Of a stretch of DNA of 64,000 nt, positions 11,061 to 56,029 are shown piece by piece. Made by a program: the position numbers and the translations under genes. The stretch spans positions 14,879,885-14,943,884 of the forward strand of contig NC_092705.1 of the NCBI RefSeq assembly GCF_964275005.1, given 5' to 3'. The notes below the pieces were generated by a model that saw only the letters and a program-made list of their open reading frames with translations, did no database searches and was not told the DNA's origin. Source of the DNA: Diadema setosum (lineage: Eukaryota; Echinodermata; Echinoidea; Diadematoida; Diadematidae). How positions within the stretch are numbered: the stretch's first letter is position 1; the number at the start of each line of letters is the position of its first letter.

Positions 11061-11483
11061 CACCCAAGAGTTATTTTTCAGATTGATTCTCTCTTGCTGA
11101 ATTACAACATATGGACTGCTGTTGCAATACATTGAACACAATATATGCTTGGAGTCAATGGAGACTGTTCTTTCTTTTGTTGTCAGTCATTTCTTCCTGT
11201 GATTTCAATAACTGGTAGCTGTAGTTCATCAGAAGATGTTGCATATTAAAGAATTCATTATAAGCAGTCTTGCCCAAATAGTGATCTTGGACATACCAGT
11301 GGATTTCAAGCAGGCTGAATTCAAGCTCCGCATATGTGAAACAAAAATGATTACAGGAATACATACATTAGATACAATTAGACAGTCACTTTGACATTCA
11401 GTGTACATGCAGTGGTATAATGCTGTTACTGTATAATGCGGCTGATTTTAACGGAAGTGTCTGATTTTTATCTCACTGCAGAG

Positions 11484-13053
11484 ATGACGGAGGAGGAGGC
11501 CGTGCTGGTAGTCGCCAAGTGGGACTATGACTCCAAGCAGGACGAGGAGCTCAGCATCAAACGTAACGAGAAGCTCCGACTCATCGATGACTCCCGATCA
11601 TGGTGGAAGGTCAAGAAACTGACTGGCAATGGCCAGTGTGGCTATGTCCCCTCAAATTACGTGAAGAGGGACAAGCTAGGCTTTGTGGAGCGAATCCGAA
11701 AGGGCATATCGGGGAAGCGCGGCGGCCGGCCGACCAATCCACCCATGCCGCAGTCCCCCGCGGAGAACTTGCAGCCGCACAACGCGGTCCACCCCGGTGA
11801 TAACTCGTTTTCGCAGCTAGCGCAGGTCATTTTTCAGTACAAGGCAGCTCAGGATGACGAACTTAACCTGAACAAGGGGGACATGGTTAATGTGCTAGAG
11901 AAGTCCGGCGACGGCTGGTGGCGCGGTGAGTGCAACGGTGAAAGCGGGTGGTTCCCGTCAAACTATGTGAGCGAGAAAGACACAAGCTTGCCCAACAGTC
12001 AGATCTCATTAGGTAGTTCCAAGGGTGAGGAGAGCTACGTTCCAGAGGACTTTGTTCAAGGTGTGAGGACTCTGTACGCCTTCAAAGGGCGCAATGACGA
12101 GGAATTGAACTTTGAGAGTGGTGAGGCTCTGGATATCATCTCCAATTCCTCGGACGACCTCGACTGGTGGAAGGCTCGCAACAAGCACGGGCAGATAGGA
12201 CTAGTGCCCCGCAATTATGTGGAGGTGGTGCCCAATGCCGCCCCCGTCTTTAAGCAGATGTTCATCGAGGACGCCGTGCCAAAGCCTCCCGACCTGCCGC
12301 GAGACAACAACATGGTCCCTTCGGTGGGGCTCCTCGACAGGGATTGGTTTCATGGAAGGATAACGCGGCAGGAGTCGGAGAAGGTGCTCCACTGCCAGGG
12401 AGAGAGCGGTCTTTTCCTTATCCGAGAAAGTGAAACGATGGTAAGTCTCTCTGGTAAAAACAGCTAATTTTAGAAAAATCTTAACAATCTCTCTCTGTCA
12501 GCTCATTGGTGCATTGGAAAATGCCAGTAATGTCTTCTATTTGGTAAGGTGATTTGGAGGTTGAAGTTTTTGAGCACTTTGTTGATTAGCATCAATCAGA
12601 TGTGCTTTTGTGGGATAAACAAACAAAATAGTAAAGAACAAACATGCAGCAAGATTGCAGATGTAAATCCCTGACCTCGCATGGTTTCAGGTTTAAGAAT
12701 TTCTTTGTGGAAGTAGTTTAATTGAAAGTGAAAGAATGCTTGTTTTGTGCTGAACCCAGAATGGACACAGTAAACACATTATTTCGTATCATTTTATTTC
12801 TCCTTGGATGTACTTGAGATAGTATTTAAATATCTTGTTTTCTCTGCAGCCTGGGGATTTTGCTGTATCGGTCAAAGCCCCGGATAGAGTGAAGCATTTC
12901 AAGGTTACGCAGACAGACAAGAAATACTGCATCGGACAGCGCAAGTTTGATACATTAGATGAACTGGTTGACCACTACAAGCGCTCGCCAATCTTCAGCT
13001 CGGACGACGGTATGCTGAAACTTTATCTGACACGTCCTATCCCGGTAGATTAA
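11484..13053 (+). CDS. NCK: Nck-type SH2/SH3 adaptor protein (two coding exons)
   Basis: Exons 11484-12440 and 12850-13053 give 386 aa; human NCK1/2 are about 380. Known family role: a cytoplasmic adaptor that binds phosphotyrosine on receptors and docking proteins through its SH2 domain and passes the signal through SH3 domains to WASP/WIP, PAK and actin regulators. Seen here: SH3-1 about residues 6-61 (AKWDY, SWWKV, PSNYV), SH3-2 about 112-164 (DGWWRG, PSNYV), SH3-3 about 192-249 (LYAF, DWWKAR, VPRNYV), and SH2 from about 288 (DWFHGRITR, then FLIRESE with the phosphotyrosine-binding Arg). Exon 1 ends in phase 0 at GTAAGT; exon 2 follows CTCTGCAG and resumes [10 protein letters not shown], ending in TRPIPVD. 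The ATG at 11484 is chosen because it lies two bases after an AG acceptor and starts the Nck-like [15 protein letters not shown]; the upstream in-frame ATG at 11436 would be intronic. NCK1 and NCK2 arose within vertebrates, so a single pro-orthologue is expected. Confidence 0.95.
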
Positions 13054-26638: not shown

Positions 26639-27384
26639 GTCTCGCCCATTCGCGTACAAGGAATTAACATTTTTTATAACTCCCAGAAGTTAATTGACCT
26701 GCTTATGACCTTTGACCTTGTGGTGACCTTCAACACCCCAAGGGACATTTACCATTCAAGTTTGGTCACAAACGGACAAAGGGATCAGAAGTAATGAGCT
26801 ATAATCGAAATGCGCCATAAAAACTTAACATTGGGCCCTAAAAATTTGTTGACCCCTTTCTGTGACCTTTGACCTTGTGATGACCTTTAACTCCCCAAGG
26901 GACATCTACCATCCAAGTTTGGTCACAAACGGACATAGGGATCAAAAGTTATGAGCCACAATCAAAATGCACCCTAAAAACATAACATTGGGCCCTAAAA
27001 GTTTGTTGACCCCTCTATGTGACCTTTGACCTTGTGACGACCTTCAACTCCCCAAGGGACATCTTCCATCCAAGTTTGGTCACAAACGGACAAAGGGATC
27101 AAAAGTTATGAGCCATAAACGAAATGCGCCCTAAAAACTTAACATTGGGCCCTAAAAGTTTGTTGACCCCTGTCTGTGACCTTTGACCTTGTGGTAACCT
27201 TCAACTTCCCAAGAGACATCTACCATCACCCAAGTTTGATTGCCATTGTAGCAACATGTGCCGAGTTACGTGTGATAAGAGAGTCTTGCAAGTAAACTTT
27301 AACGTATGACCTCAAACGACCTCGGACGACGGACGGACGCCATTTGGCTCCCTTAGTCTCGCCTTCACCTCCGGTGGGCGAGAC
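26639..27384. mobile_element. HINE/pearl-like composite repeat 1
   Basis: The core is four tandem units starting at about 26694, 26849, 27006 and 27163 (period about 155-157 bp, the last incomplete). A short GACGGACGG tract follows (about 27325-27340), then a terminal hairpin at 27356-27384 with arms GTCTCGCC/GGCGAGAC. The left end GTCTCGCCCA (26639-26648) is the inverted copy of the right hairpin arm TGGGCGAGAC (27375-27384). Tandem core, ACGG tract, 3' hairpin and subterminal inverted repeats are the known plan of pearl/CvA-type elements, which have been interpreted as Helentron-derived HINEs. It has no coding capacity. Each core unit contains TGACCTTTGACCTTG. Confidence 0.65.
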
Positions 27385-33324: not shown

Positions 33325-36300
33325 CAGGGTTGTCCATAAAAGCCGGGTACCGGGTATTTTACCCGTCTATTCATTCAGTTGTTGCCGGCTATCGAATCAG
33401 CTGCCAGTATTATTTTAAATTGGCTTTTATTGCACCACCTTACTTGTGAATTGTCTGTTTTCTGTTGTCAAGCATGCATGCGATATGGCCACATATACAT
33501 GGCGGTGATCGGTGATCGACGAGACGGTCGACAACTACAGTAGCTCGCAGCTAGTTCTCGATCTCGCCATCCGTGCTCCATCACACGATCACTGCAGTAT
33601 TTATAGTCTATGGTGCATGCAATACACAGAACGTCAAACAAACGTTTGACGCGCACGCGCGAGCTTACACACAGCTAGCTAGCTAGCCTCCGTACTGTGT
33701 AGAGAATTACCGTATACGTACCGCTATCGCGAGCCCAGCCTAGCCACCTATAGCGCCTATCGCGATGAGATGGAGGGGAAAAGGCCAAGGAAACGTCAGT
33801 CCCAGGCAACACTACAAGCATATTTTGCCCCGGCCCCAAAAACGAAATGCTCTGGTAAGTACTGTAAAACGAGGAATTTCCGCGTGCATTTTAATTTCAT
33901 GAATTTCGCGAGAGCCAAAATTTTTGGTCTGCATACACATACTAGTAATAGATGCGGAGATCCGATACAATGCAGTACACTGTACGGTTCGCTGACTTGT
34001 ATTGTACAGCTATACTACGTTGTACGAGTGCTTAGCACAATAGGAGAACACTTCAGTTTTGAGAAACAGAAGATTCACAGCTTTTATCACTGTAAAAAGT
34101 GTTCATCAATAAGCCAAGAGGAAGTGAACAGTCAGCGTTCTTTGAAATATAATTTCAACCACAACTGGATATCAGACAAAGTAACATTTTGCTCTGAAAC
34201 TGGCATTTATTGGCTTGTCTACAGTGAACAAGAACAAGGAATGTACTGTGTATTATGCAGGAAACACAATTCCCAGAATGACAGAAACAAGAGCAAAATC
34301 TTCAATAAAGATGCTGCAACTAGATTTCGCAGGGAAGCACTGCAGGGCCACGCTGTCAACAAGCAACACCGATCGGCCGTAACGTCTGAGTTGATTAGCA
34401 GGGTGTCCGTCTTTCACCATGAATATGTGGAACAGAGAGAGAACGTGGATACTGTACTTTCCAATGTATTTTCTTCCTGCTATTTTTTAGCTAAGGAAGA
34501 GATTGCCAACCGGAAGATAATTCCACTGACAAGCTTTCTTCAGGTAGTAGGACTGAATATGAAATCGTTCCACCACACTTCACAAAGATCGGTACGTGAA
34601 TTGTTCATATGTCTAGGTGAGACAATTAAGGAGATGGTAGTAACCAGAGCTGCAGAGGCTGGAATGTATGGTGTTTTGGTTGATGATGCGACAGACATTG
34701 CTGTTATTGAACAGATGGTCACCTTTGTGAGCTATGTGAATCAGGAGACTGCATCAACACAAGTAGACTTCCTCTCTGTAACAAATGTCCTTGAAGATCC
34801 CGATAGTGAAGGTGCAAATGCTAAAGTCCTCTTCACAAAGCTAATGAAAGAGCTTGATAAATGTGACTTAGATGTGGCTGATTTCATGGGATTAGTCACG
34901 GATGGTGCCGCAGTTATGACTGGAGCAAATGGTGGATTGGCAGCACTAATCAAAAAGGAAAACAAGGAAATGATATCTGTACACTGCATTTGCCACAGAC
35001 TATCACTGGCTTGTACCAGATCCACTGATGAAACAAACTATCTGCCAGTTGTTGAGACAATCCTGCGCCAACTGTGGAAATTCTACGAGAATTCTCCGAA
35101 GAGAACAGCGCAGTTCATGAAGACCCAACTGGAGTATAAAGCTGCTGTTACACCGACTCTGATTGGTGAAGCCAAGAAACTTGTTGTGCGCAAAATCCGC
35201 AAGGCATGCAGAACAAGATGGTTATCGCTAGATCATTCGGTGCAGGGTGTTTTCCATGACTTTGCTCCTTTGCTGCTTTCTCTGAATCATTTCGCTGAGA
35301 AGGATGCAGTTGCAACTGGACTCCTGAAGAAGATGAAAACAGCCAAATTCCTTGGGGCAATTCACATCTTGAAGGAAGTTCTACCAATTCTATCAACATT
35401 GAGCAAGATCTTTCAGTATGGGACTGTCAACTATGCAAGAATAGGGCCTGCATTGTCAGCAGCGAAAGCTGCTTTGAGAGAGGTCCTTGATTCGGGACGT
35501 GTGCTAGCAGACATGAGAAAGGACTTAGCAGAAGATGGTCGGCTGTCGACATGTGAACTTCACCCAACCGAACACCAGTACAATGAGGTTTCATCGATGC
35601 TCCAGAAGTATGTTTCTGCACTTGAAGAGAACCTCGACCACCGGTTTAAAGTAGCTTTACCGGTCCTACAGAGCTTCTCCATCTTTGACCCCATGTCTTG
35701 CTCTGAGGATTTGAGTTATGGTAGAGCTGAGATCAAAATCCTTGGAAAGCACTTCTTCCCAGATTGTACAGATTCTAGAAGAAAACTTGATGCCGAGTGG
35801 TGCAATTTCAAGTATGAGATGCTGCAATGGTAGTAGAACAGAACTGAATTGAGAACAGCCAAGTCACCCACCGAATTTACCACACACACTTCATCAGGAA
35901 CTCCAGTGAAAGAAAACACTCTGTAAAAGCCATCTCAAGTTACTGAACTCTCATGATTTCATCATAATTCATTTAATTTACTGTGATTCTCAACTCATTC
36001 AAATTTTACTGTTTTGACATGTACATGTAAGATTACTGTTATGAACACATCCAAGTTACTGGATTTGTGAACTTATCAGACTTATAGTTGTTACTCTGAC
36101 AAGTGAAGTATAAAAACAATAACAAATGCAAGAAACCAGAGTGAATGTAGTGCATGTACAGTTTATAATTTGCATAAGATGGCAGCTCATTTTTAATTAG
36201 ATGTCAAAGTCATTATCATTCCAACCTTGATGACTTTAACATAAAATAAAATGGGCTACCTATCTGTATAGCATATTTCAACTCATTTTATTAATGATAA

Positions 36301-42930: not shown

Positions 42931-43292
42931 ACAGAAAAAGAAGTCTAAGGAAAGACAACGGCAATATAGATCTCGAAGCATGGCCATCTCAATTTCGCAG
43001 GAAACAGCGTAACAACTGCGGGTCATCAGTTAAGAAAGTGTATGGACCTGATTTTGTGTTTGCATTGATGTCATTGATTTTCACCAAACTAAAGGTATTC
43101 ATGCAGTGGGGATGTGTAGCAATGCCTTCTGTAAGAGAGAGCATGTGCTGCAAGGAGATCGAGCAAATCGTAGCAAAAATTGACTCCTACAATGGAAACC
43201 TTGACGGCATCACGGAACATCCACGGTTTGTGACTGTGTGCCTGGATGTGTACAGGTATGTGCTGGAGACTGCATATTTCCAGTATCACTAA
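42930..43292 (+). pseudogene. P2X7 intracellular (ballast) domain-like segment, left edge of array
   Basis: After a TTCTGAACAG acceptor-like site the frame runs into GCVAMPSVRESMCCKEIEQI, then a Lys-rich turn, GITEHPRFVTVCLDVYRYVL and ETAYFQYH. The P2X7 intracellular domain family has the same spacing: a Cys-x-x-MP block, ESxCC, then ITEHPGF, VCL and L-x-TAY-x-QY. In P2X7 the cysteines of this domain bind zinc and the domain anchors the receptor cytoplasmic tail; in invertebrates the domain occurs alone or in transposon-like proteins. There is no P2X channel here (no transmembrane or ATP-binding part). The array homology starts at about 43030, so the first part of this frame is the pre-array flank. 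Later copies are partly open and partly interrupted. Confidence 0.6.
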
Positions 43293-43399
43293 CAGTATGG
43301 GGTGGAATAAATGCAGCATCGTTACAACTGGCTGAAATTCCATCAATTGTAGGATAGCTACGAATTGGTGGCTGGTCTTAAAGATAAAAATGATAAGAT

Positions 43400-44152
43400 A
43401 TGATATGTGACTCCAAGATGAACCACGTGGAGCATCTCTGGGCCCCCTGCACCAAGGCCTTGACCAGCGTCTACTTGCCGTCCACCTTACCCGGCGAGGA
43501 GCATTCCCCATGTCACCAGAGCATCACCGAACAGGAGAAGACACAGAAAGAGCGTACCATCTTTGATGCTGCAATGAGGAACATCAGAGACATTCACTGG
43601 TGGCACCTTTCTTTCTCAGGCAAGCGGGTGCTAGTTGACGCAGAGCCCAGCGGTGGAGAGCAGCAGCCATACGGAGCGGACTACGACTACGTCAACGCCA
43701 CCATCAGGGGATCAGCCAGGACACTGTGAGGGAGCACCATCGACGAGGAATATACCTTCATCCACCAGCACATGGACAGACGCATAGGATGCATCATCTT
43801 TACAAAGTGTAACACCTGTGACCACTGCACAGAACACCCTCCTTCGATGAATGCCGACGACCTACGCATCTTCAGGGAATTTCCTTCGCCATCATCATCT
43901 ACAGCAACACTGGGACACTTTGTCACATTCGCGGAAGCTCTTCAAGCGCACAGTGTACCACCATGCCAGCATATGCTCCTGTTCCAGGAGAAGGGGCTTG
44001 GTCGGTGCAACCGCGACGGATGCTGCTACGTCTTCACCAGTAAGAAAGATGTGAACGACCACCGACTGAAGTTTCACACTTTTGGCTTCTCACCTACAAA
44101 CTGCAGCCTGACAAGGTTAATATTGTCTGTAGGTAAAAGTGCATGGACCTGA
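43400..44152 (+). pseudogene. Array unit: unknown domain plus C2H2 zinc finger (representative copy)
   Basis: Two frames in the same phase follow each other: a 109-codon one (MICDSKMNHVEHLWAPCTKA at the start; later IFDAAMRNIRDIHWWHLSFS, GKRVLVDAEPSGG and YGADYDYVN) and a 126-codon one (RRIGCIIFTKCNTCDHC, TEHPP, then CNRDGC-x12-H-x4-H). The last motif is a canonical C2H2 zinc finger; the CNTCDHC block could be a second metal site. I do not recognise the remaining parts. Equivalent frames occur in all eight units, for example 44499-45251, 45599-46351, 47798-48550, 52012-52764 and 53112-53864. The conserved-looking protein content suggests an ancestral DNA-binding or transposon-encoded protein. 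There is no sign that the array copies are expressed. Confidence 0.6.
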
Positions 44153-47100
44153 ATTTGTGTTGGATTGATGTCATTGATTTTCACCAAATTAAAGGTATTC
44201 ATGCAGTGGGCATGTGTAGCCATGCCTTCTGTAAGAGAGAGCATGTGCTGCAAGGAGATCGAGCAAATCGTAGCAAAAATTGACTCCTAGAATGGAAATC
44301 TTGACGGCATCACAAGATACTCAGGGTTTGTGACTGTGTGCCTGGATGTGTACAGGTATGTACTGGAGACTGCATATTTCCAATATCACTAACAGTATGG
44401 GGTGGAATAAATGAAGCATCGTTACAACTGGCTGAAATCCATCAATTGTGGGATGGCTACGAATTGGTGGCTGGTTTTAACAATAAAAATGATAAGATAT
44501 GATATGTGACTCCACGATGAACCCCGTGGAGCATCTCTGGGCCCCCTGCACCAAAGCCTTGACCAGCGTCTACTTGCCGTCCACCTTACCCGGCGAGGAG
44601 CAACCCCCATGTCGCCAGAGCATCACCGAACAGGAGAAGACACAGAAAGAGCGCTCCATCTTCGATGCTGCAATGAGGAACATCAGAGACATTCACTGGT
44701 GGCACCTTTCTTTCTCAGGCAAGCGGGTGCTAGTTGACACAGAGCCCAGCGGTGGAGAGCAGCAGCCATACGGAGCGGACTACGACTACGTCAACGCCAT
44801 CATCAGGGGATCAGCCAGGACACTGTGAGGGAGCACCATCGACGAGGAATATACCTTCATCCACCAGCACATGGACAGACGCATAGGATGCATCATCTTT
44901 ACAAAGTGTAACACCTGTGACCACTGCACAGAACACCCTCCTTCGATGAATGCCGACGACCTATGCATCTTCAGGGAATTTCCTTCGCCATCATCATCTA
45001 CAGCAACACTGGGACACTTTGTCACATTCGCGGAAGCTCTTCAAGCGCACAGTGTACCACCATGCCAGCATATGCTCCTGTTCCAGGAGAAGGGGCTTGG
45101 TCGGTGCAACCGCGACGGAAGCCGCTACGTCTTCACCAGTAAAAAAGATGTGAACGACCACCGACTGAAGTTTCACACTTTTGGCTTCTCACCTACAAAC
45201 TGCAGCCTGACAAGGTTAATATTGTCTGTAGGTAAAAGTGCATGGACCTGAATTTGTGTTTGGATTGATGTCATTGATTTTCACCAAACTAAAGGTATTC
45301 ATGCAGAGGGGATGTGTAGCCATGCCTTCTGTAAGAGAGAGCATGTGCTGCAAGGAGATCGAGCAAATCGTAGCAAAAATTGACTCCTACAATGGAAACC
45401 TTGACGGCATCACAAGATATTCAGGGTTTGTGACTGTGTGCCTGGATGTGTACAGGTATGTGCTGGAGACTGCATATTTCCAATATCACTAACAGTATGG
45501 GGTGGAATAAATGAAGCATCGTTACAACTGGCTGAAATCCATCAATTGTGGGATTGCTACGAATTGGTGGCTGGTCTTAAAGATAAAAATGATAAGATAT
45601 GATATGTGACTCCAAGATGAACCCCGTGGAGCATCTCTGGGCCCCCTGCACCAAGGCCTTGACCAGCGTCTACTTGCCGTCCACCTTACCCGGCGAGGAG
45701 CATTCCCCATGTCGCCAGAGCATCACCGAACAGGAGAAGACACAGAAAGAGCGCACCATCTTCGATGCTGCAATGAGGAACATCAGAGACATTCACTGGC
45801 GGCACCTTTCTTTCTCAGGCAAGCGGGTGCTAGTTGACGCAGAGCCCAGCGGTGGAGAGCAGCAGCCATACGGAGCGGACTACGACTACGTCAACGCCAT
45901 CATCAGGGGATCAGCCAGGACACTGTGAGGGAGCACCATCGACGAGGAATATACCTTCATCCACCAGCACATGGACAGACGCATAGGATGCATCATCTTC
46001 ACAAAGTGTAACACCTGTGACCACTGCACAGAACACCCTCCTTCGATGAATGCCGACGACCTACGCATCTTCAGGGAATTTCCTTTGCCATCGTCATCTA
46101 CAGCAACACTGGGACACTTCGTCACATTCGCGGAAGCTCTTCAAGCGCCCAGTGTACCACTATGCCAGCATATGCCCCTGTTCCAGGAGAAGGGGCTTGG
46201 TCGGTGCAACCGCGACGGATGCCGCTACGTCTTCACCAGTAAAAAAGATGTGAACGACCACCGACTGAAGTTTCACACTTTTGGCTTCTCACCTACAAAC
46301 TGCAGCCTGACAAGGTTAATATTGTCTGTAGGTAAACGTGCATGGACCTGAATTTGTGTTGGATTGATGTCATTGATTTTCACCAAATTAAAGGTATTCA
46401 TGCAGTGGGCATGTGGAGCAATGCCTTCTGTAAGAGAGAGCATGTGCGGCAAGGAGATCGAGCAAATCGTAGCAAAAATTGACTCCTAGAATGGAAATCT
46501 TGACGGCATCACAAGATATTCAGGGTTTGTGACTGTGTGCCTGGATGTGTACAGGTATGTACTGGACACTGCATATTTCCAATATCACTAACAGTATGGG
46601 GTGGAATAAATGAAGCATCGTTACAACTGGCTGAAATTCATCAATTGTGGGATAGCTACGAATTGGTGGCTGGTCTTAAAGATAAAAATGATAAGATATG
46701 ATATGTGACTCCACGATGAACCCTGTGGAGCATCTCTGGGCCCCCTGCACCAAGGCCTTGACCAGCGTCTACTTGCCATCCACCTTACCCGGTGAGGAGC
46801 AACCCCCATATCGCCAGAGCATCGCCGAACAGGAGAAGACACAGAAAGAGCGCTCCATCTTCGATGCTGCAATGACGAACATCAGAGACATTCACTGGCG
46901 GCACCTTTCTTTCTCAGGCAAGCGGGTGCTAGTTGACACAGAGCCCAGCGGTGGAGAGCAGCAGCCATACGGAGCAGACTACGACTACATCAAAGCCATC
47001 ATCAGGGGATCAGCCAGGACACTGTGAGGGAGCACCATCGACGAGGAATATACCTTCATCCACCAGCACATGGACAGACGCATATGATGCATCATCTTCA

Positions 47101-48990
47101 CAAAGTGTAACACCTGTGACCACTGCACAGAACACCCTCCTTCGATGAATGCCGACGACCTACGCATCTTCAGGGAATTTCCTTTGCCATCGTCATCTAC
47201 AGCAACACCGGGACACTTCGTCACATTCGCGGAAGCTCTTCAAGCGCCCAGTGTACCACTATGCCAGCATATGCCCCTGTTCCAGGAGAAGGGGCTTGGT
47301 CGGTGCAACCGCGACGGATGCCGCTACGTCTTCACCAGTAAGAAAGATGTGAACGACCACCGACTGAAGTTTCACACTTTTGGCTTCTCACCTACAAACT
47401 GCAGCCTGACAAGGTTAATATTGTCTGTAGGTAAAAGTGCATGGACCTGAATTTGTGTTTGGATTGATGTCATTGATTTTCACCAAACCAAAGGAATTCA
47501 TGCAGTGGGCATGTGTAGCAATGCCTTCTGTAAGAGAGAGCATGTGCGGCAAGGAGATCGAGCAAATCGTAGCAAAAATTGACTCCTAGAATGGAAATCT
47601 TGACGGCATCACAAGATATTCAGGGTTTGTGACTGTGTGCCTGGATGTGTACAGGTATGTACTGGAGACTGCATATTTCCAATATCACTAACAGTATGGG
47701 GTGGAATAAATGAAGCATCGTTACAACTGGCTGAAATCCATCAATTGTGGGATGGCTACGAATTGGTGGCTGGTTTTAACGATAAAAATGATAAGATATG
47801 ATATGTGACTCCACGATGAACCCTGTGGAGCATCTCTGGGCCCCCTGCACCAAAGCCTTGACCAGCGTCTACTTGCCGTCCACCTTACCTGGCGAGGAGC
47901 AACCCCCATGTCGCCAGAGCATCACCGAACAGGAGAAGACACAGAAAGAGCGCACCATCTTCGATGCTGCAATGACGAACATCAGAGACATTCACCAGCG
48001 GCACCTTTCTTTCTCAGGCAAGCGGGTGCTAGTTGACGCAGAGCCCAGCGGTGGAGAGCAGCAGCCATACGGAGCAGACTACGACTACGTCAAAGCCACC
48101 ATCAGGGGATCAGCCAGGACACTGTGAGGGAGCACCATCGACGAGGAATATACCTTCATCCACCAGCACATGGACAGACGCATAGGATGCATCATTTTCA
48201 CAAAGTGTAACACCTGTGACCACTGCACAGAACACCCGCCTTCGATGAATGCGGATGACCTACGCATCTTCAGGGAATTTCCTTCGCCATCGTCATCTAC
48301 AGCAACACCGGGACACTTCGTCACATCCGCGGAAGCTCTTCAAGCACCCAGTGTACCACCATGCCAGCATATGCCCCTGTTCCAGGAGGAGGGGCTTGGT
48401 CAGTGCAACCGCGACGGATGCCGCTACGTCTTCACCAGTAAGAAAGATGTGAACGACCACCAACTGAAGTTTCACACTTTTGGCTTCTCACCTACAAACT
48501 GCAGCCTGACAAGGTTAATATTGTCTGTAGGTAAAAGTGCAGGGACCTGAATTTGTGTTTGGATTGATGTCATTGATTTTCACCAAACTAAAGGAATTCA
48601 TGCAGTGGGGATGTGTAGCAATGCCTTCTGTAAGAGAGAGCATGTGCTGCAAGGAGATCGAGCAAATCGTAGCAAAAATTGACTCCTAGAATGGAAACCT
48701 TGACGGCATCACGGAACATCCAGGGTTTGTGAGTGTGTGCCTGGATGTGTACAGGTATGTGCTGGAGACTGCATATTTCCAATATCACTAACAGTATGGG
48801 GTGGAATAAATGAAGCATCGTTACAACTGGCTGAAATCCATCAATTGTGGGATGGCTACGAATTGGTGGCTGGTCTTAAAGATAAAAATGATAAGATATG
48901 ATATGTGACTCCACGATGAACCCCATGGAGCATCTCTGGGCCCCCTGCACCAAGACCTTGACCAGCGTCCACTTGCCGCCCACCTTACCC

Positions 48991-50990
48991 TGAATATCAC
49001 TCTAAACAAGTTAATGACCGTGGAAAAGACACAAAGAAACTCCTTCAGGTTGTAAACAAGCTTCTTGGCAGAAAACAGAAATCCCCTCTACCTGAGTATG
49101 ATTCTGACAAAGAATTGGCTAACCAATTTAATCGGGTTTTCGTCGATAAGATAGCGAATATACGCTTATCCTTACCATGTGTTTGTGTGGTTAAAAATGA
49201 AGCTGAAGTTGCAACTACTTCAAAATTAGACTCACTAAATCCAAACTCTGTAACTGAGGTTAAGAATATGATTATGAAGTCTCCAAATAAGTCATGTAAA
49301 TTAGACCCTTTTTGTACGAATCTGATAAAAAAATGTGTATCAGTGACTGCCCCTGCCATTACGAGCATAATAAATGGCAGTTTTGCAACAGGTGTTGTGC
49401 CATATGAATTGAAAACAGCGGTGATATTTCCAACCCTCAAAAGACCTCATTTAGATAAGAACATGTTAAACAATCATCGACCAATTTCAAACCTGCCATT
49501 TGTTAGCAAAGTTATGGAACGTGTTTCCTTTTCATGCCTACGAGACTACTTGCGGGAGAATGATTTTCTTGATAGCCACCAATCAGCGTATCGCCCTGAT
49601 CATAGTGTAGAGACATTACTTACTGACCTAACTGATCAATGTTTGAGACAGATGGATGCTGGGAATATCACTGCAGTTGTTTTACTTGATATGTCGGCAG
49701 CTTTTGATACTGTTGACCATTCCATTCTCACCCAGACTCTCAGATCTGTTGGTGTCACAGGACTTGCATTAAAGTGGTTTCAATCTTACCTTACCAGCCG
49801 TTCACAATATGTTAAGATCAATGACAGTAACTCTGATCCAGCTGCACTACTTGCGGTGTCCCGCAAGGGTCTGTAGGTGGACCACTTCTATTCTCACTAT
49901 ATCTTTCAAGGATTAGACACATTATTGAAAGACACGACATTCAGTATCACTGTTATGCAGATGATATACAAATATTTGTATCTTTTTCACCAACCAGGAC
50001 TGAACTCTCTGAAGCTGTAAAACGATTGGAATTACGTATTGATGATGTTAAGGCATGGATGGAAAGAAATGGTCTCAAATTTAATGGCAGTAAGTCAGAA
50101 TTTATTCTGATAGTATCCAAACAGATGTTGTCTAAAGTGAATTCTGATACATGTTATTTAGAATTGGCAATAGTAATATCAAGCCTTCGAACAAAGTTCG
50201 TAATCTTGGTGTTGTTTATGATGCAAATCTGACGTTCAAAGATCATATTTCGTATGTATCCCAATCTATAAGATTTCATTTGCGTAACCTGGGCTCAATT
50301 CAGAGATACTTAACTAGATCAGCAGCAGAAAAACTGATGCATACTCTTATTTCGTCTCGTCTAGATTTCTGCAATTCTCTGTTTTGCAGCCTTCCACAAA
50401 AAGAACTCAGTAAACTGCAATGTCTTCAGAATTGTGCCGCTAGATTACTTACTTTCAAGAAGAAAACTGTGCATACCACCCCAATACTTCGGTCCCTACA
50501 CTGGCTTCCTGTAGAAAAACATATTAACTCAAGATTCTTCTTCTTGGTTACTGTACATTGCACAAATTTGCCCCTGTCTACTTTCAAAATACTCTTCATC
50601 TTCACCAACCACCACATAATCTCCGTTCATCAAACTCGCTAAAATTACAGGTACCTCGAATCAAGCATAATTGGGGGGATCGGGCTTTTTCATATATGGG
50701 CCTAAAACTACGGAATGGCCTACCAAAATCTCTTACAGAAGCATCTTCCATTGATGGTTTCAAAAAGAATCTTGAGACATATATTTTCAATTTAAATTGA
50801 CAATATTGTATACCTGTATGTATAGTATGTGTACGTATATAGGCCTATTGTTTGTTGGTTTATTGTCTTACTATTTTTGTGATACTGTTGTAATGTGACA
50901 CAATATGTACTCTGTTCTATAGCGCCTCGAGTATCTTTTTTAGGTAGAAATGTGCGCTTTATAAGAGTCTCACTATTACTATTATTATCA
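48991..50990 (+). mobile_element. 5'-truncated LINE (CR1/L2/jockey-like group) inside array unit 6
   Basis: The 2,000-bp insert is bordered by TTACCC at 48985-48990 and 50991-50996; other units have this sequence only once. It encodes reverse-transcriptase blocks in order: KSCKLDPFCTNLIKKC, NNHRPISNLPFVSKVMERVS, SHQSAYRPDHSVETLL, VLLDMSAAFDTVDHSIL (fingers/palm), a GVPQGS-like block, and the catalytic CYADDIQIF at about 49953-49980. A C-terminal part follows (SRLDFCNSLF, LHWLPV, RNGLPKSLTEASSIDGFKKN). The frame shifts near 49858, near 50150 and near 50545, so it is dead. There is no endonuclease domain: the copy is cut at its 5' end as LINEs often are. The 3' end is an ACT/ATT simple-repeat tail. 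Confidence 0.9.
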
Positions 50991-53868
50991 TTACCCAGCG
51001 AGGAGCAAAACCCCCATGTCGCCAGAGCATCACCGAACAGGAGAAGACACAGAAAGAGCGCACCATCTTCGATGCTGCAATGAGGAACATCAGAGACATT
51101 CACTGGCGGCACCTTTCTTTCTCAGGCAAGCGGGTGCTAGTTGACGCAGAGCCCAGCAGTGGAGAGCAGCAGCTATACGGAGCGGACTACGACTACGTCA
51201 AAGCCACCATCAGGGGATCAGCCAGGACACTGTGAGGGAGCACCATCAACGAGGAATATACCTTCATCCACCAGCACATGGACAGACGCATAGGATGCAT
51301 CATCTTCACAAAGTGTAACACCTGTGACCACTGCACAGAACACCCTCCTTCGATGAATGCCGACGACCTACGCATCTTCAGGGAATTTCCTTTGCCATCA
51401 TCATCTACAGCAACACCGGGACACTTCGTCACATTCGCGGAAGCTCTTCAAGCGCCGAGTGTACCACCATGCCAGCATATGCCCCTGTTCCAGGAGAAGG
51501 GGCTTGGTCGGTGCAACCGCGACGGATGCCGCTACGTCTTCACCAGTAAAAAAGATGTGAACGACCACCGACTGAAGTTTCACACTTTTGGCTTCTCACC
51601 TACAAACTGCAGCCTGACAAGGTTAATACCGGTATTGTCTGTAGGTAAAAGTGCATGGACTTGAATTTGTGTTTGGATTGATGTCATTGATTTTCACCAA
51701 ATTAAAGGTATTCATGCAGTGGGCATGTGTAGCAATGCCTTCTGTAAGAGAGAGCATGTGCGGCAAGGAGATCGAGCAAATCGTAGCAAAAATTGACTCC
51801 TAAAATGGAAATCTTGACGGCATCACAAGATATTCAGGGTTTGTGACTGTGTGCCTGGATGTGTACAGGTATGTACTGGAGACTGCATATTTCCAATATC
51901 ACTAACAGTATGGGGTGGAATAAATGAAGCATCGTTACAACTGGCTGAAATCCATCAATTGTGGGATGGCTACGAATTGGTGGCTGGTTTTAACGATAAA
52001 AATGATAAGATATGATATGTGACTCCACGATGAACCCCGTGGAGCATCTCTGGGCCCCCTGCACCAAAGCCTTGACCAGCGTCTACTTGCCGTCCACCTT
52101 ACCCGGCGAGGAGCAACCCCCATGTCGCCAGAGCATCACCGAACAGGAGAAGACACAGAAAGAGCGCACCATCTTCGATGCTGCAATGACGAACATCAGA
52201 GACATTCACAGGCGGCACCTTTCTTTCTCAGGCAAGCGGGTGCTAGTTGACGCAGAGCCCAGCAGTGGACAGCAGCAGCTATACGGAGCGGACTACGACT
52301 ACGTCAAAGCCACCATCAGGGGATCAGCCAGGACACTGTGAGGGAGCACCATCAACGAGGAATATACCTTCATCCACCAGCACATGGACAGACGCATAGG
52401 ATGCATCATCTTCACAAAGTGTAACACCTGTGACCACTGCACAGAACACCCTCCTTCGATGAATGCCGACGACCTACGCATCTTCAGGGAATTTCCTTCG
52501 CCATCATCATCTACAGCAACACTGGGACACTTTGTCACATTCGCGGAAGCTCTTCAAGCGCACAGTGTACCACCATGCCAGCATATGCTCCTGTTCCAGG
52601 AGAAGGGGCTTGGTCGGTGCAACCGCGACGGATGCCGCTACGTCTTCACCAGTAAAAAAGATGTGAACGACCACCGACTGAAGTTTCACACTTTTGGCTT
52701 CTCACCTACAAACTGCAGCCTGACAAGGTTAATATTGTCTGTAGGTAAACGTGCATGGACCTGAATTTGTGTTTGGATTGATGTCATTGATTTTCACCAA
52801 ATTAAAGGTATTCATGCAGTGGGCATGTGTAGCAATGCCTTCTGTAAGAGAGAGCATGTGCGGCAAGGAGATCGAGCAAATCGTAGCAAAAATTGACTCC
52901 TAGAATGGAAATTTTGACGGCATCACAAGATATTCAGGGTTTGTGACTGTGTGCCTGGATGTGTACAGGTATGTACTGGAGACTGCATATTTCCAATATC
53001 ACTAACAGTATGGGGTGGAATAAATGAAGCATCGTTACAACTGGCTGAAATCCATCAATTGTGGGATGGCTACGAATTGGTGGCTGGTTTTAACGATAAA
53101 AATGATAAGATATGATATGTGACTCCACGATGAACCCCGTGGAGCATCTCTGGGCCCCCTGCACCAAAGCCTTGACCAGCGTCTACTTGCCGTCCACCTT
53201 ACCCGGCGAGGAGCAACCCCAATGTCGCGAGAGCATCACCGAACAGGAGAAGACACAGAAAGAGCGCACCATCTTCGATGCTGCAATGACGAACATCAGA
53301 GACATTCACTAGCGGCACCTTTCTTTCTCAGGCAAGCGGGTGCTAGTTGACGCAGAGCCCAGCGGTGGAGAGCAGCAGCTATACGGAGCGGACTACGACT
53401 ACGTCAACGCCATCATCAGGGGATCAGCCAGGACACTGTGAGGGAGCACCATCGACGAGGAATATACCTTCATCCACCAGCACATGGACAGACGCATAGG
53501 ATGCATCATTTTCACAAAGTGTAACACCTGTGACCACTGCACAGAACACCCTCCTTCGATGAATGCGGACGACCTACGCATCTTCAGGGAATTTCCTTCG
53601 CCATCGTCATCTACAGCAACACCGGGACACTTCGTCACATTCGCGGAAGCTCTTCAAGCACCCAGTGTACCACCATGCCAGCATATGCCCCTGTTCCAGG
53701 AGGAGGGGCTTGGTCAGTGCAACCGCGACGGATGCCGCTACGTCTTCACCAGTAAGAAAGATGTGAACGACCACCAACTGAAGTTTCACACTTTTGGCTT
53801 CTCACCTACAAACTGCAGCCTGACAAGGTTAATATTGTCTGTAGGTAAAAGTGCATTGACCTGAATTT

Positions 53869-54105
53869 GTGTTTGGATTGATGTCATTGATTTTCACCAA
53901 ACTAAAGGAATTCATGCAGAGGGGATGTGTAGCAATGCCTTCTGTAAGAAAGAGCATGTGCTGCAAGGAGATCGAGCAAATTGTAGCAAAAATTGACTCC
54001 TACAATGGAAACCTTGACGGCATCACAAGATATTCAGGGTTTGTGACTGTGTGCTTGGATGTGTACAGGTATGTGCTGGAGACTGCATATTTCCAATATC
54101 ACTAA
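53869..54105 (+). pseudogene. P2X7 ballast-like segment, right edge of array
   Basis: This last copy of the domain is open from FGLMSLIFTKLKEFMQRGCV to LETAYFQYH. Array homology fades at about 54200, shortly after the CAGTACGGGGTGGAATAAATG motif, so the ninth unit lacks the zinc-finger part. Confidence 0.6.
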
Positions 54106-54615
54106 CAGTACGGGGTGGAATAAATGAAGCATCATTCCAACTGGCTGAAATTCCATCAATTGTGGGATAGCTACGAATTGGTGACTGGTCGTAAAGATGA
54201 AATCTTGAAAAAAGCATGAATCCCAACATATTATACCTCTATGGAAAGGTAATTTTATGAATATTATGTTTAAATAACGCTTTTACATCAAATTCAATCA
54301 GGTAAAACAGAAAACCTGATTTTAGGACTCGTTTCTGCATTGCACAGTTATATCAGTTTTGGAACAGTCCAGTAATTTTTTTTTATGATGTCACTGAAGG
54401 GAACTGTGCAGAACACAACGTCATTACACTACATGCTGTTCACAGTAAATCCATCAAAATCCCTACCTTCAAAGATCAGCTTTTTGAACCTCCATCTCCA
54501 GAAAAAATAGTTACTGGTCGATTATATTTCAATTTGAAGTGTACCTTGAATATTTCCTTGTTTCCTTCCCTCAATGCCCTCTAAACTATCCAAAATATTG
54601 ACTTAAAATGACCTA

Positions 54616-55059
54616 AATAAGCCAGTTCGTAATTAGCTCATGGGCACGTTGGTACAAATGACCTTTCTTTTTTCTCAGTTGGTTACGCACTTCAATCGTT
54701 TTCAGAGAGACATTATGAGTACCGGTAAGCTTGCCCGACGTAATAATTCATGGAATTCGTGTTCACACAATGAATGAACTTGCGTAGACCACGTGACCAG
54801 AATGGTCTGTCAATCAACCGTCGGGGAAGCATCCATTTCATTGTTTTGCATTGAATGCATTAAAAAACTGTTTTATTCTTATTGCCAAATACCAGGTTTG
54901 CTGTCAGGTGGATGTACTGGCAAGCAACATTTACAAGGATGCATGAATAATCATTGTATGACAGATGTTTATCTCAGTGAATTTAAAAACCAACTTGCCT
55001 CTTGGTACAAATGACCTTTTTTTGCTCATGCGCAAAGTGGAACTACGAACTGGCTTATT
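54616..55059. mobile_element. Inverted-repeat element (AATAAGCCAGTTCGTA ends)
   Basis: The left end AATAAGCCAGTTCGTAATT and the right end AACTACGAACTGGCTTATT are inverted copies. About 440 bp, no recognised coding. Inside, TTGGTACAAATGACCTTTCT (near 54650) is repeated in direct orientation near 55003. The target duplication is unclear. Confidence 0.65.
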
Positions 55060-56029
55060 GCCCGAACTGACGACGGCGAGAGGACAACCGCCGCGCACCC
55101 AGCCATTCACAGCCTGCTCAATCTCATTTGTTTTCCTCATGCAAGTGCATTGTTTTTCGTAACTTAAGTCAATGTCATCGAAAAAAATGTGTGTTTACAT
55201 GGAATAACACGAATAACCACAAAGCGTCAGTGGGTGCTATCTACAGCTGTACGGAGTGCTCAATTTCAGATTTTCTGCCGCAGTTTTGGAGGAGGTTTGA
55301 ACACTTGCCAGGCGATGATTCGACTGTGATAATAGCCCCACATGTACATCCACATGTATGTACACCAATTACATAATTCAGTCGAACCTGAAAAGCTGTA
55401 GATCCATATATCGTGACGATTTCACTTCAACACACTATAGGATGCACACATTATACTATCGATTTCCCGTGCACTCGCAATGGCTTCATCGTCATAAACA
55501 TAAATATAAACCTGCAATTATTGTATCAATGGTCATGATATTCATATGTCCAGAACGCTGACACTCTGATTATTTCATTTCCAGTACTGGATGTGTAAAA
55601 TTACAACATTTGCTATTCTTAATCCATGAATGAAAGCAAACAAACAAATTGATTTTGTAACTTTTGGATTACTGTACTTCACTTCTGCTGAGTACTATGA
55701 CTGCACTGTGCATTGAATGGCAGCATGTCATATACCATTTTAAAGAGAATTTTATCTTCTTTCAGATGACATATAACTTGTCTATGTTTTGTTCATTGCT
55801 TGCTAATGGAGAGTGATTGTTCAGAGAGTTGTCTGCCTGTTGGCATGTGTGCGCAAACGGTGCTGGGCCACTGCGGTGTTTGTTTACACAAGTACGTTGG
55901 CCCGATATGGGTTAATCTACATACATGGAGCTGTTACCAGTGGGAAAAAGTGGTTATACCCTAAAAAGGTTTTGTTTGATAAATACTAATAACTAAGTTG
56001 AATTTAGTAGGAATTGTTTGCTTGTTTGT

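What the first reader, a model, noticed from the sequence alone, without database searches (positions are those of the whole stretch)
43030..54200. Kilobase satellite built from a P2X7-ballast-like domain and a C2H2 zinc-finger segment
Eight full units and a partial ninth, each 1,099-1,101 bp, stand head-to-tail. Each carries recognisable protein-coding matter: a P2X7 intracellular-domain-like block (MCCKEIEQI ... GITEHPRF ... TAYFQYH) and a conserved frame ending C-x4-C-x12-H-x4-H. Such a large-unit, coding-derived tandem array is unusual. The arrangement could be a satellite grown from a transposon gene, or a repeated exon set. The P2X7-type domain being joined to an otherwise unrecognised domain and a zinc finger suggests an undescribed transposon-encoded protein.
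Basis: partly seen in the sequence, partly recalled or inferred. Interest (0 to 1): 0.8.

Follow-up and report, generated by a model that had tools for sequence, protein, structure and literature searches.

The report
Tandem array of dead transposase-gene fragments
About eight head-to-tail copies of a 1.1-kilobase scrap, fusing a dead piece of a transposase-like gene with a dead piece of an exon related to the P2X7 receptor tail, sit on one animal chromosome and evolve like non-coding DNA; the array is real but is an ordinary kind of genomic debris.

Summary
The array is real: eight ~1.1-kb units plus a partial ninth at 43035 to ~54192, units 95.2-98.5% identical.

The P2X7-like block is supported only indirectly: it gives no Pfam hit itself but is 66% identical to an exon on C16 which, joined by me to the next exon, matches P2RX7_C at 5.6e-12. 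The "unrecognised domain" and zinc finger are one thing: the last ~225 codons of a family with DDE-transposase signatures, weakly ISAzo13/Zator-like.

Elsewhere the two parts were found apart: nearest pair 29,989 bp, and no ballast match in 22 loci around the family. The units share inherited disablements, and variation fits neutrality (nonsynonymous/synonymous 2.21, simulated 2.21, P=0.59).

Best reading: two dead gene fragments came to lie side by side, were duplicated in tandem and shuffled by unequal exchange. New member of a known kind; the recently copied parent family is the better lead.

The parts
43035..54202 (+). Tandem array: eight units of about 1.1 kb and a partial ninth (right edge somewhere in 54189-54202)
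   Evidence: blastn of one unit against the window; units and alignment
43035..44134 (+). Unit 1 (1100 bp); register inferred from the left edge of the array
   Evidence: first partial match starts at 43035
44135..45234 (+). Unit 2 (1100 bp)
45235..46333 (+). Unit 3 (1099 bp)
46334..47433 (+). Unit 4 (1100 bp)
47434..48533 (+). Unit 5 (1100 bp)
48534..51647 (+). Unit 6, split by the insertion (48534-48990 and 50997-51647 are unit sequence, 1108 bp)
48991..50990 (+). LINE-type insertion, 2,000 bp, reverse transcriptase in two frames; target duplication TTACCC at 48985-48990 and 50991-50996; 5' truncation inferred
   Evidence: Pfam RVT_1 4.5e-11 and 1e-15; junction letters
51648..52747 (+). Unit 7 (1100 bp)
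52748..53847 (+). Unit 8 (1100 bp)
53848..54192 (+). Partial unit 9; ends where a dispersed repeat begins
43098..43289 (+). Dead ballast (P2RX7_C N-half) exon piece in unit 1; repeated at 44198, 45298, 46397, 47497, 48597, 51711, 52811, 53911
   Evidence: genome search; 66% identity to exon L053; nine of nine lack one base present in L053 and nine of nine have TAA (alignment)
43397..44149 (+). C-terminal part of the DDE-type protein in unit 1, from ...MN[HP]VEHLWAPC to the finger, with an in-frame TGA in the middle; repeated in all eight units
44006..44077 (+). C-x4-C-x12-H-x4-H finger at the end of that region (unit 1)
   Evidence: letters; zf-C2H2 in unit 3 below cut-off (14.1 against 25.2 bits) and not reported for unit 1
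54192..55177 (+). Dispersed repeat abutting the array, itself interrupted by a ~440-bp repeat at about 54618-55057

Best explanation
A local, non-functional tandem array. Step 1 (inferred): the last coding part of a DDE-type (ISAzo13/Zator-like) transposase gene and a 5' exon of a P2RX7_C (ballast) gene came to lie about 110 bp apart and both died. Step 2 (inferred from the left edge at 43035): a stretch of 1,100 bp, from 63 bp upstream of the ballast piece to about 57 bp past the zinc finger, was duplicated head to tail. Step 3 (mosaic sharing of variants shown, process inferred): unequal exchange and/or gene conversion raised and shuffled the copies. Step 4 (insertion and abutting repeat shown, order inferred from their being in one place only): a LINE inserted in unit 6, and a dispersed repeat now bounds the right end. 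No step needs a protein product, and the variation shows no sign of one.
For: Shared disablements: one-base deletion in the block against L053 9 of 9 and TAA 9 of 9 (alignment; its text match printed TAA for 8 of 8 full units and missed the ninth through a neighbouring base), TGA between the two halves of the transposase piece 8 of 8. Neutral variation: 42 nonsynonymous, 19 synonymous, 2 stop variants in 753 bp; non/syn 2.21 against simulated mean 2.21, P=0.586; stops 2 against 2.5 expected; variant density 8.4% in the former coding part, 9.2% outside; codon positions 24/18/21. Mosaic pattern along the unit (positions in the 43140 register): U5 and U8 without a difference at 801-1000, U1 and U6 mutually closest at 1-200, tracts shared by U1, U2 and U7. 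Origin of the parts. Parts apart elsewhere: among 46 non-array block hits (those with E<0.001, of 141 non-array hits at E<=10) and 59 of 59 non-array transposase hits, the nearest pair of starts is 29,989 bp apart and the next 817,858 bp; no ballast match better than E 0.23 in 22 loci of the transposase family and its surroundings, 72,482 bp with overlaps, while the same queries find the ballast loci. Insertion with target duplication.
Against: The genome search scores only its best candidates, so a locus carrying both parts could be missed. Open frames persist: the 110-codon frame in 6 of 8 units and the 140- to 142-codon frame in 7 of 8, with 120 codons in unit 4; this is expected for a young dead array in which only 2 of 63 variants make new stops. 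The pooled nonsynonymous/synonymous ratio per site is 0.64-0.66, below 1; the simulation with the observed base changes shows this is what chance gives here. No expression data were seen, so an RNA role is not excluded.
Confidence: 0.85

Rival explanations
1. The units are exons of a working repeat-protein gene (a repeated exon set).
For: Open stretches of 110 codons in 6 of 8 units and 140-142 codons in 7 of 8; the family outside the array looks constrained (dN 0.30-0.43 among L024, L021, L020 and L027 with dS saturated).
Against: Shared stops and frameshift, neutral non/syn ratio, similar variant density inside and outside the former coding part.
Confidence: 0.04
2. The unit is the remains of one transposon whose protein or gene set united ballast domain, DDE core and zinc finger.
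For: A ballast-fold protein (KolX) is encoded by Kolobok Kol0 transposons (PMC9587614, passages), so ballast and transposase can travel together; both parts are on the same strand here.
Against: Outside the array the nearest pair is 29,989 bp apart and the next 0.8 Mb; no ballast match better than E 0.23 in 22 loci of the family and its surroundings. These loci do not reach the ends of the parent copies, so a ballast gene further out is possible. The transposase piece resembles ISAzo13; Kolobok was not tested.
Confidence: 0.08
3. Satellite with an RNA or chromatin role (for example a small-RNA source), kept for that reason.
For: Nothing positive; not excluded by sequence.
Against: No second array was found in 912.7 Mb, neutral spectrum, interrupted by a LINE and bounded by a dispersed repeat.
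Confidence: 0.03

Closest known systems
Satellite or tandem arrays that arise from transposable-element sequence (review PMC12628747: passages; PMC6947457: search listing and start of abstract only)
   Same: Tandem copies of part of a transposon-type gene; unequal crossing-over is a mechanism named in the passage seen
   Different: The unit is a chimera with a second dead exon; long unit (1.1 kb), few copies, one array found
P2RX7_C / ballast (zinc-coordinating cysteine) domain; KolX of Kolobok Kol0 (PMC9587614 and PMC7016195: passages)
   Same: The block aligns to the first exon of two-exon ballast genes in this genome
   Different: Only the N-half is present, frameshifted and stopped; no C-half in the unit
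ISAzo13 transposases and the eukaryotic Zator superfamily (pairing: PMC10045372 and PMC5718144, passages)
   Same: Parents show D-x-K-x-K, HDFP, DGG and N-P-[IV]-E-H in the same order as the ISAzo13 proteins read here; D2 and E aligned by profile comparison
   Different: Matches are far below family cut-offs; some parents are split into exon-like pieces and end in a C2H2-like finger; ends and 3-bp target duplication not seen; no Zator sequence was available

Membership tests
P2RX7_C / ballast domain (the block) | Direct match of the block to PF20478 | tested here: not met
   0 families at E<=10; no P2X7 chain in the PDB search
P2RX7_C / ballast domain (the block) | Homology to an exon of a gene that matches PF20478 | tested here: met
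   66% identity, 3e-27 to L053 exon 1; L053 exons, joined by me without RNA evidence: PF20478 5.6e-12 over residues 16-123 of 125, of which 1-78 are exon 1. Exon 1 alone does not match
P2RX7_C / ballast domain (the block) | Complete zinc-coordinating cysteines and C-half | tested here: not met
   No C-half in the three-frame translation of the unit; one-base deletion at the first cysteines
C2H2 zinc finger | C-x4-C-x12-H-x4-H spacing and Pfam cut-off | tested here: inconclusive
   Pattern in 7 of 8 units; PF00096 14.1 bits in unit 3, cut-off 25.2, and no hit in unit 1
ISAzo13 / Zator DDE transposase (parent family) | Profile similarity to ISAzo13 | tested here: inconclusive
   NF033519: L054 1.9e-4, L027 0.021, L021 0.078, L024 and L020 none (3 of 5, cut-off 200 bits not reached); trimmed L054 8.3e-5; PF07592: L054 0.042, L024, L021, L027, L020 none; hhalign of A5 against four ISAzo13 proteins: probability 55%, E 1.2e-4; home-made 4-sequence HMM: L027 and L054 rank first and second but at E 0.81 and 4.1, L021 among the shuffles
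ISAzo13 / Zator DDE transposase (parent family) | Three catalytic acids in the expected motifs | tested here: inconclusive
   DGGPD and NP[IV]EH in 5 of 5; first D (SADNK, SCDSK) in the 2 of 5 whose stretch covers it; no structure
ISAzo13 / Zator DDE transposase (parent family) | Terminal inverted repeats and 3-bp target duplication | tested here: inconclusive
   No ends found: C2/C15 identity runs to the limits of what was fetched; C3/C5 identity runs to the 5' limit and breaks up into repeats on the 3' side
ISAzo13 / Zator DDE transposase (array units) | Catalytic core present in the unit | tested here: not met
   Units hold about positions 356-580 of the 582-aa relative: the E motif but neither D; three unit pieces gave no NCBIfam hit

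The most novel reading that the evidence does not exclude
The array is a by-product of an undescribed, recently mobile animal lineage of ISAzo13/Zator-like elements: large (at least 5.6 kb for C3/C5, a span of some 12 kb for C2/C15), with a transposase that ends in a C2H2-like finger and occurs both as an intron-split gene and as a single-frame gene, and that can seed tandem arrays together with neighbouring exons.
Probability: 0.3. Interest if true: 0.4.

Novelty: new member of a known kind. Interest (0 to 1): 0.22.

Why it matters
For the array itself: little beyond a clean worked example of how dead coding matter becomes a tandem repeat, useful as a caution that open frames in a satellite need not mean protein. 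The parent family could matter more: no Pfam or NCBIfam model reached its cut-off on the members scanned, it looks constrained, and it has nearly identical copies on several chromosomes.

Tried and rejected
Direct Pfam and PDB searches of the block: no P2X7 hit; the best PDB hit was a calmodulin-like kinase at 0.16, taken as chance. PDB search with the 582-aa relative: nothing. Viral contig scan with the family: 27 pattern matches, none confirmed. Own-genome search with PF07592: one weak hit below cut-off, at a place not in the family's list. tblastn of L054 against plasmids: one chance hit at E 7, which only served as a door to a record that holds ISAzo13. The first profile comparison was uninformative (A3 against one 212-aa ISAzo13 piece lacking the E motif: E 0.036; hAT-like control 0.11); the better result came after trimming the alignment and using four full ISAzo13 proteins, and no unrelated control was run for that form. 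Home-made ISAzo13 HMM too weak. Element ends for the parent family: not found. Structure prediction was not used: the tool's description admits window proteins and loci from certain other tools, and the window holds no complete core. Organism not identified. Loci L010 and L011 (outer flanks of the window) were fetched and not analysed.

Literature: seven searches with P2X7, ballast and transposase or transposon, Zator with TP36 or ISAzo13, and satellite-from-transposase terms. None of the listed titles and abstract starts describes this array or a ballast-ISAzo13 fusion; the lists were cut (20 of 45, 20 of 57, 12 of 13, 10 of 262), and the library lacks most subscription papers.

Full report
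OBSERVATION. One unit matched against the window gives the array 43035-54202 with a period of ~1,100 bp. In the register that starts at the left edge it has eight units and a partial ninth. Identity among the eight units is 95.2-98.5%, with 108 variable columns including gaps. The tandem repeat program did not list the array; its longest period is 500. The window lies at G000:C22:14879885-14943884 of a 912.7-Mb assembly in 102 contigs. A 1,201-base array query found 11 places, 10 in this array and one on C4, 82% identical over query positions 507-1160.

THE ZINC-FINGER PART. The two open frames of the unit (110 and 140 codons, split by TGA) are one region. The second frame alone found 21 places in the genome, 8 in the array; of the 13 others, 7 lie in frames of 324-582 codons (some with stops inside). 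The 582-aa relative (L024) found 68 places, 9 in the array, which covers about its positions 356-580. Some relatives are split into exon-like pieces (C1, C2, C15, C19); others (C3, C5, C6) are a single frame of 582 codons, without a stop in C5 and with one each in C3 and C6. Five relatives share DGGPD and NP[IV]EH; the two whose stretch reaches far enough upstream share D-x-K-x-K and HDFP. These are signatures of DDE transposases, and recall pointed to ISAzo13. The test gave NF033519 (ISAzo13) at 1.9e-4, 0.021 and 0.078 in 3 of 5 members, with overlapping profile ranges (227-326, 259-328, 260-326), and none in 2. PF07592 gave 0.042 for L054 and nothing for the other four. Profile comparison against four bacterial ISAzo13 proteins gave probability 55%, E 1.2e-4, putting DGG on DGG and NPIEH on NKIEH. 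All are below family cut-offs, so I call it ISAzo13-like. Zator is the eukaryotic superfamily paired with ISAzo13 in two papers (PMC10045372, PMC5718144; passages); membership in Zator was not shown. Members look constrained: dN 0.30-0.43 among L024, L021, L020 and L027 with saturated dS.

THE P2X7 PART. Alone, the block matches nothing in Pfam at E<=10 and no P2X7 chain in the PDB. In the genome it has 150 listed matches at E<=10: 9 in the array, 46 others at E<0.001, and 95 weaker. The best, at C16 (L053), is an exon 66% identical to the block in a direct comparison. About 1.2 kb further on the same strand lies an exon that matches PF20478 at 2.7e-7. Joined by me, the two exons match PF20478 at 5.6e-12 over residues 16-123, of which 1-78 are the first exon, and three P2X7 chains of the PDB at about 3e-4 and a fourth at 0.04. 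At three loci (C1, C15, C18) a block hit lies about 900 bp before a PF20478 hit. In the array it is dead: nine of nine lack one base that L053 has near the first cysteines, and nine of nine have TAA where L053 has a glutamine codon (alignment).

ARE THE TWO PARTS ONE GENE? Comparing the 46 stronger non-array block hits with 59 non-array transposase hits, the nearest pair of starts is 29,989 bp apart (C1) and the next 817,858 bp; 34 of the 59 PF20478 hits were compared in the same way, nearest 29,089 bp, at the same C1 place. In 22 loci of the transposase family and its surroundings (72,482 bp with overlaps) the block, both exons of L053 and L052 and the L032 ballast protein gave nothing better than E 0.23, while the same queries find the ballast loci at 1e-6 to 1e-114. 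The C4 relative matches only the transposase part of the unit. The chimera is therefore, as far as these searches reach, peculiar to this array. KolX, a ballast-fold protein, is encoded by Kolobok Kol0 transposons (PMC9587614, passages), so a transposon origin of the ballast copies is plausible; it was not tested here.

IS ANYTHING CODED NOW? All eight units share the TGA. Among 63 variants in the 753 bp of former coding sequence, 42 are nonsynonymous, 19 synonymous and 2 create stops. Placing the same base changes at random gives a mean ratio of 2.21 against 2.21 observed (P=0.586) and 2.5 stops. Variant density is 8.4% inside and 9.2% outside. The array shows no protein constraint since it grew. 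This test counts each distinct variant once and does not model exchange between units.

HOW IT GREW. The left edge at 43035 is preceded by sequence whose genome search gave, besides itself, four short matches of 76-81% identity; the right edge is overrun by a dispersed repeat starting at ~54189-54192, three other copies of whose first part were listed. Variant sharing is mosaic: U5 and U8 do not differ over unit positions 801-1000, U1 and U6 share a cluster near positions 75-82, and U1, U2 and U7 share others. This is what unequal exchange or conversion produces. The insertion is in one unit only, so it most likely came after amplification.

VERDICT. A real, well-bounded tandem array of two dead gene fragments; a new member of a known kind. 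The family behind the zinc-finger half deserves its own look: C3 and C5 are 99.3% identical over 4.25 kb and 97.6% over the next 1.4 kb, and C2 and C15 98.0-99.8% in the three stretches compared (about 8 kb) within a span of some 12 kb, so large copies have moved or been duplicated recently. Whether they are transposons or segmental duplications is open, because no ends were found.

Noticed in passing
G000:C3:15840624, C5:19065843, C6:38558769 (L023-L025, L055, L058-L060): Three near-identical copies (99.6-99.9% over 2.1-2.6 kb) of a 582-codon single-frame ISAzo13-like gene, two with one stop each; C3 and C5 are 99.3% identical over 4.25 kb.
   Followed up: partly
G000:C2:33071228-33083728 and C15:3117000-3129500 (L021, L022, L062-L065): Relatives split into exon-like pieces, in copies 98.0-99.8% identical in three stretches compared within some 12 kb, with about 1.8 kb extra on C15; ends not found.
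   Followed up: partly
window 33683-35833: 716-codon frame resembling a hAT-type transposase by eye (label recalled), with a C17orf113 probable zinc finger (9e-9).
   Followed up: no
window 11421-12467: Three SH3 domains and the start of an SH2 domain, the order of NCK adaptors (recalled).
   Followed up: no
window 26706-27227: 157-bp tandem repeat, 3.3 copies, 90% matches.
   Followed up: no
window 43214-43221 (unit 1) against 44314-44321 (unit 2): Five differences within 8 bp separate units 1 and 6 from the other six full units; U1 and U6 are closer to the L053 exon there, a possible conversion tract.
   Followed up: partly
G000:C3:19670236-19674851: Five pieces covering about the same protein positions (202-263 of L024) within 5 kb, perhaps a second small array of this family.
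   Followed up: no
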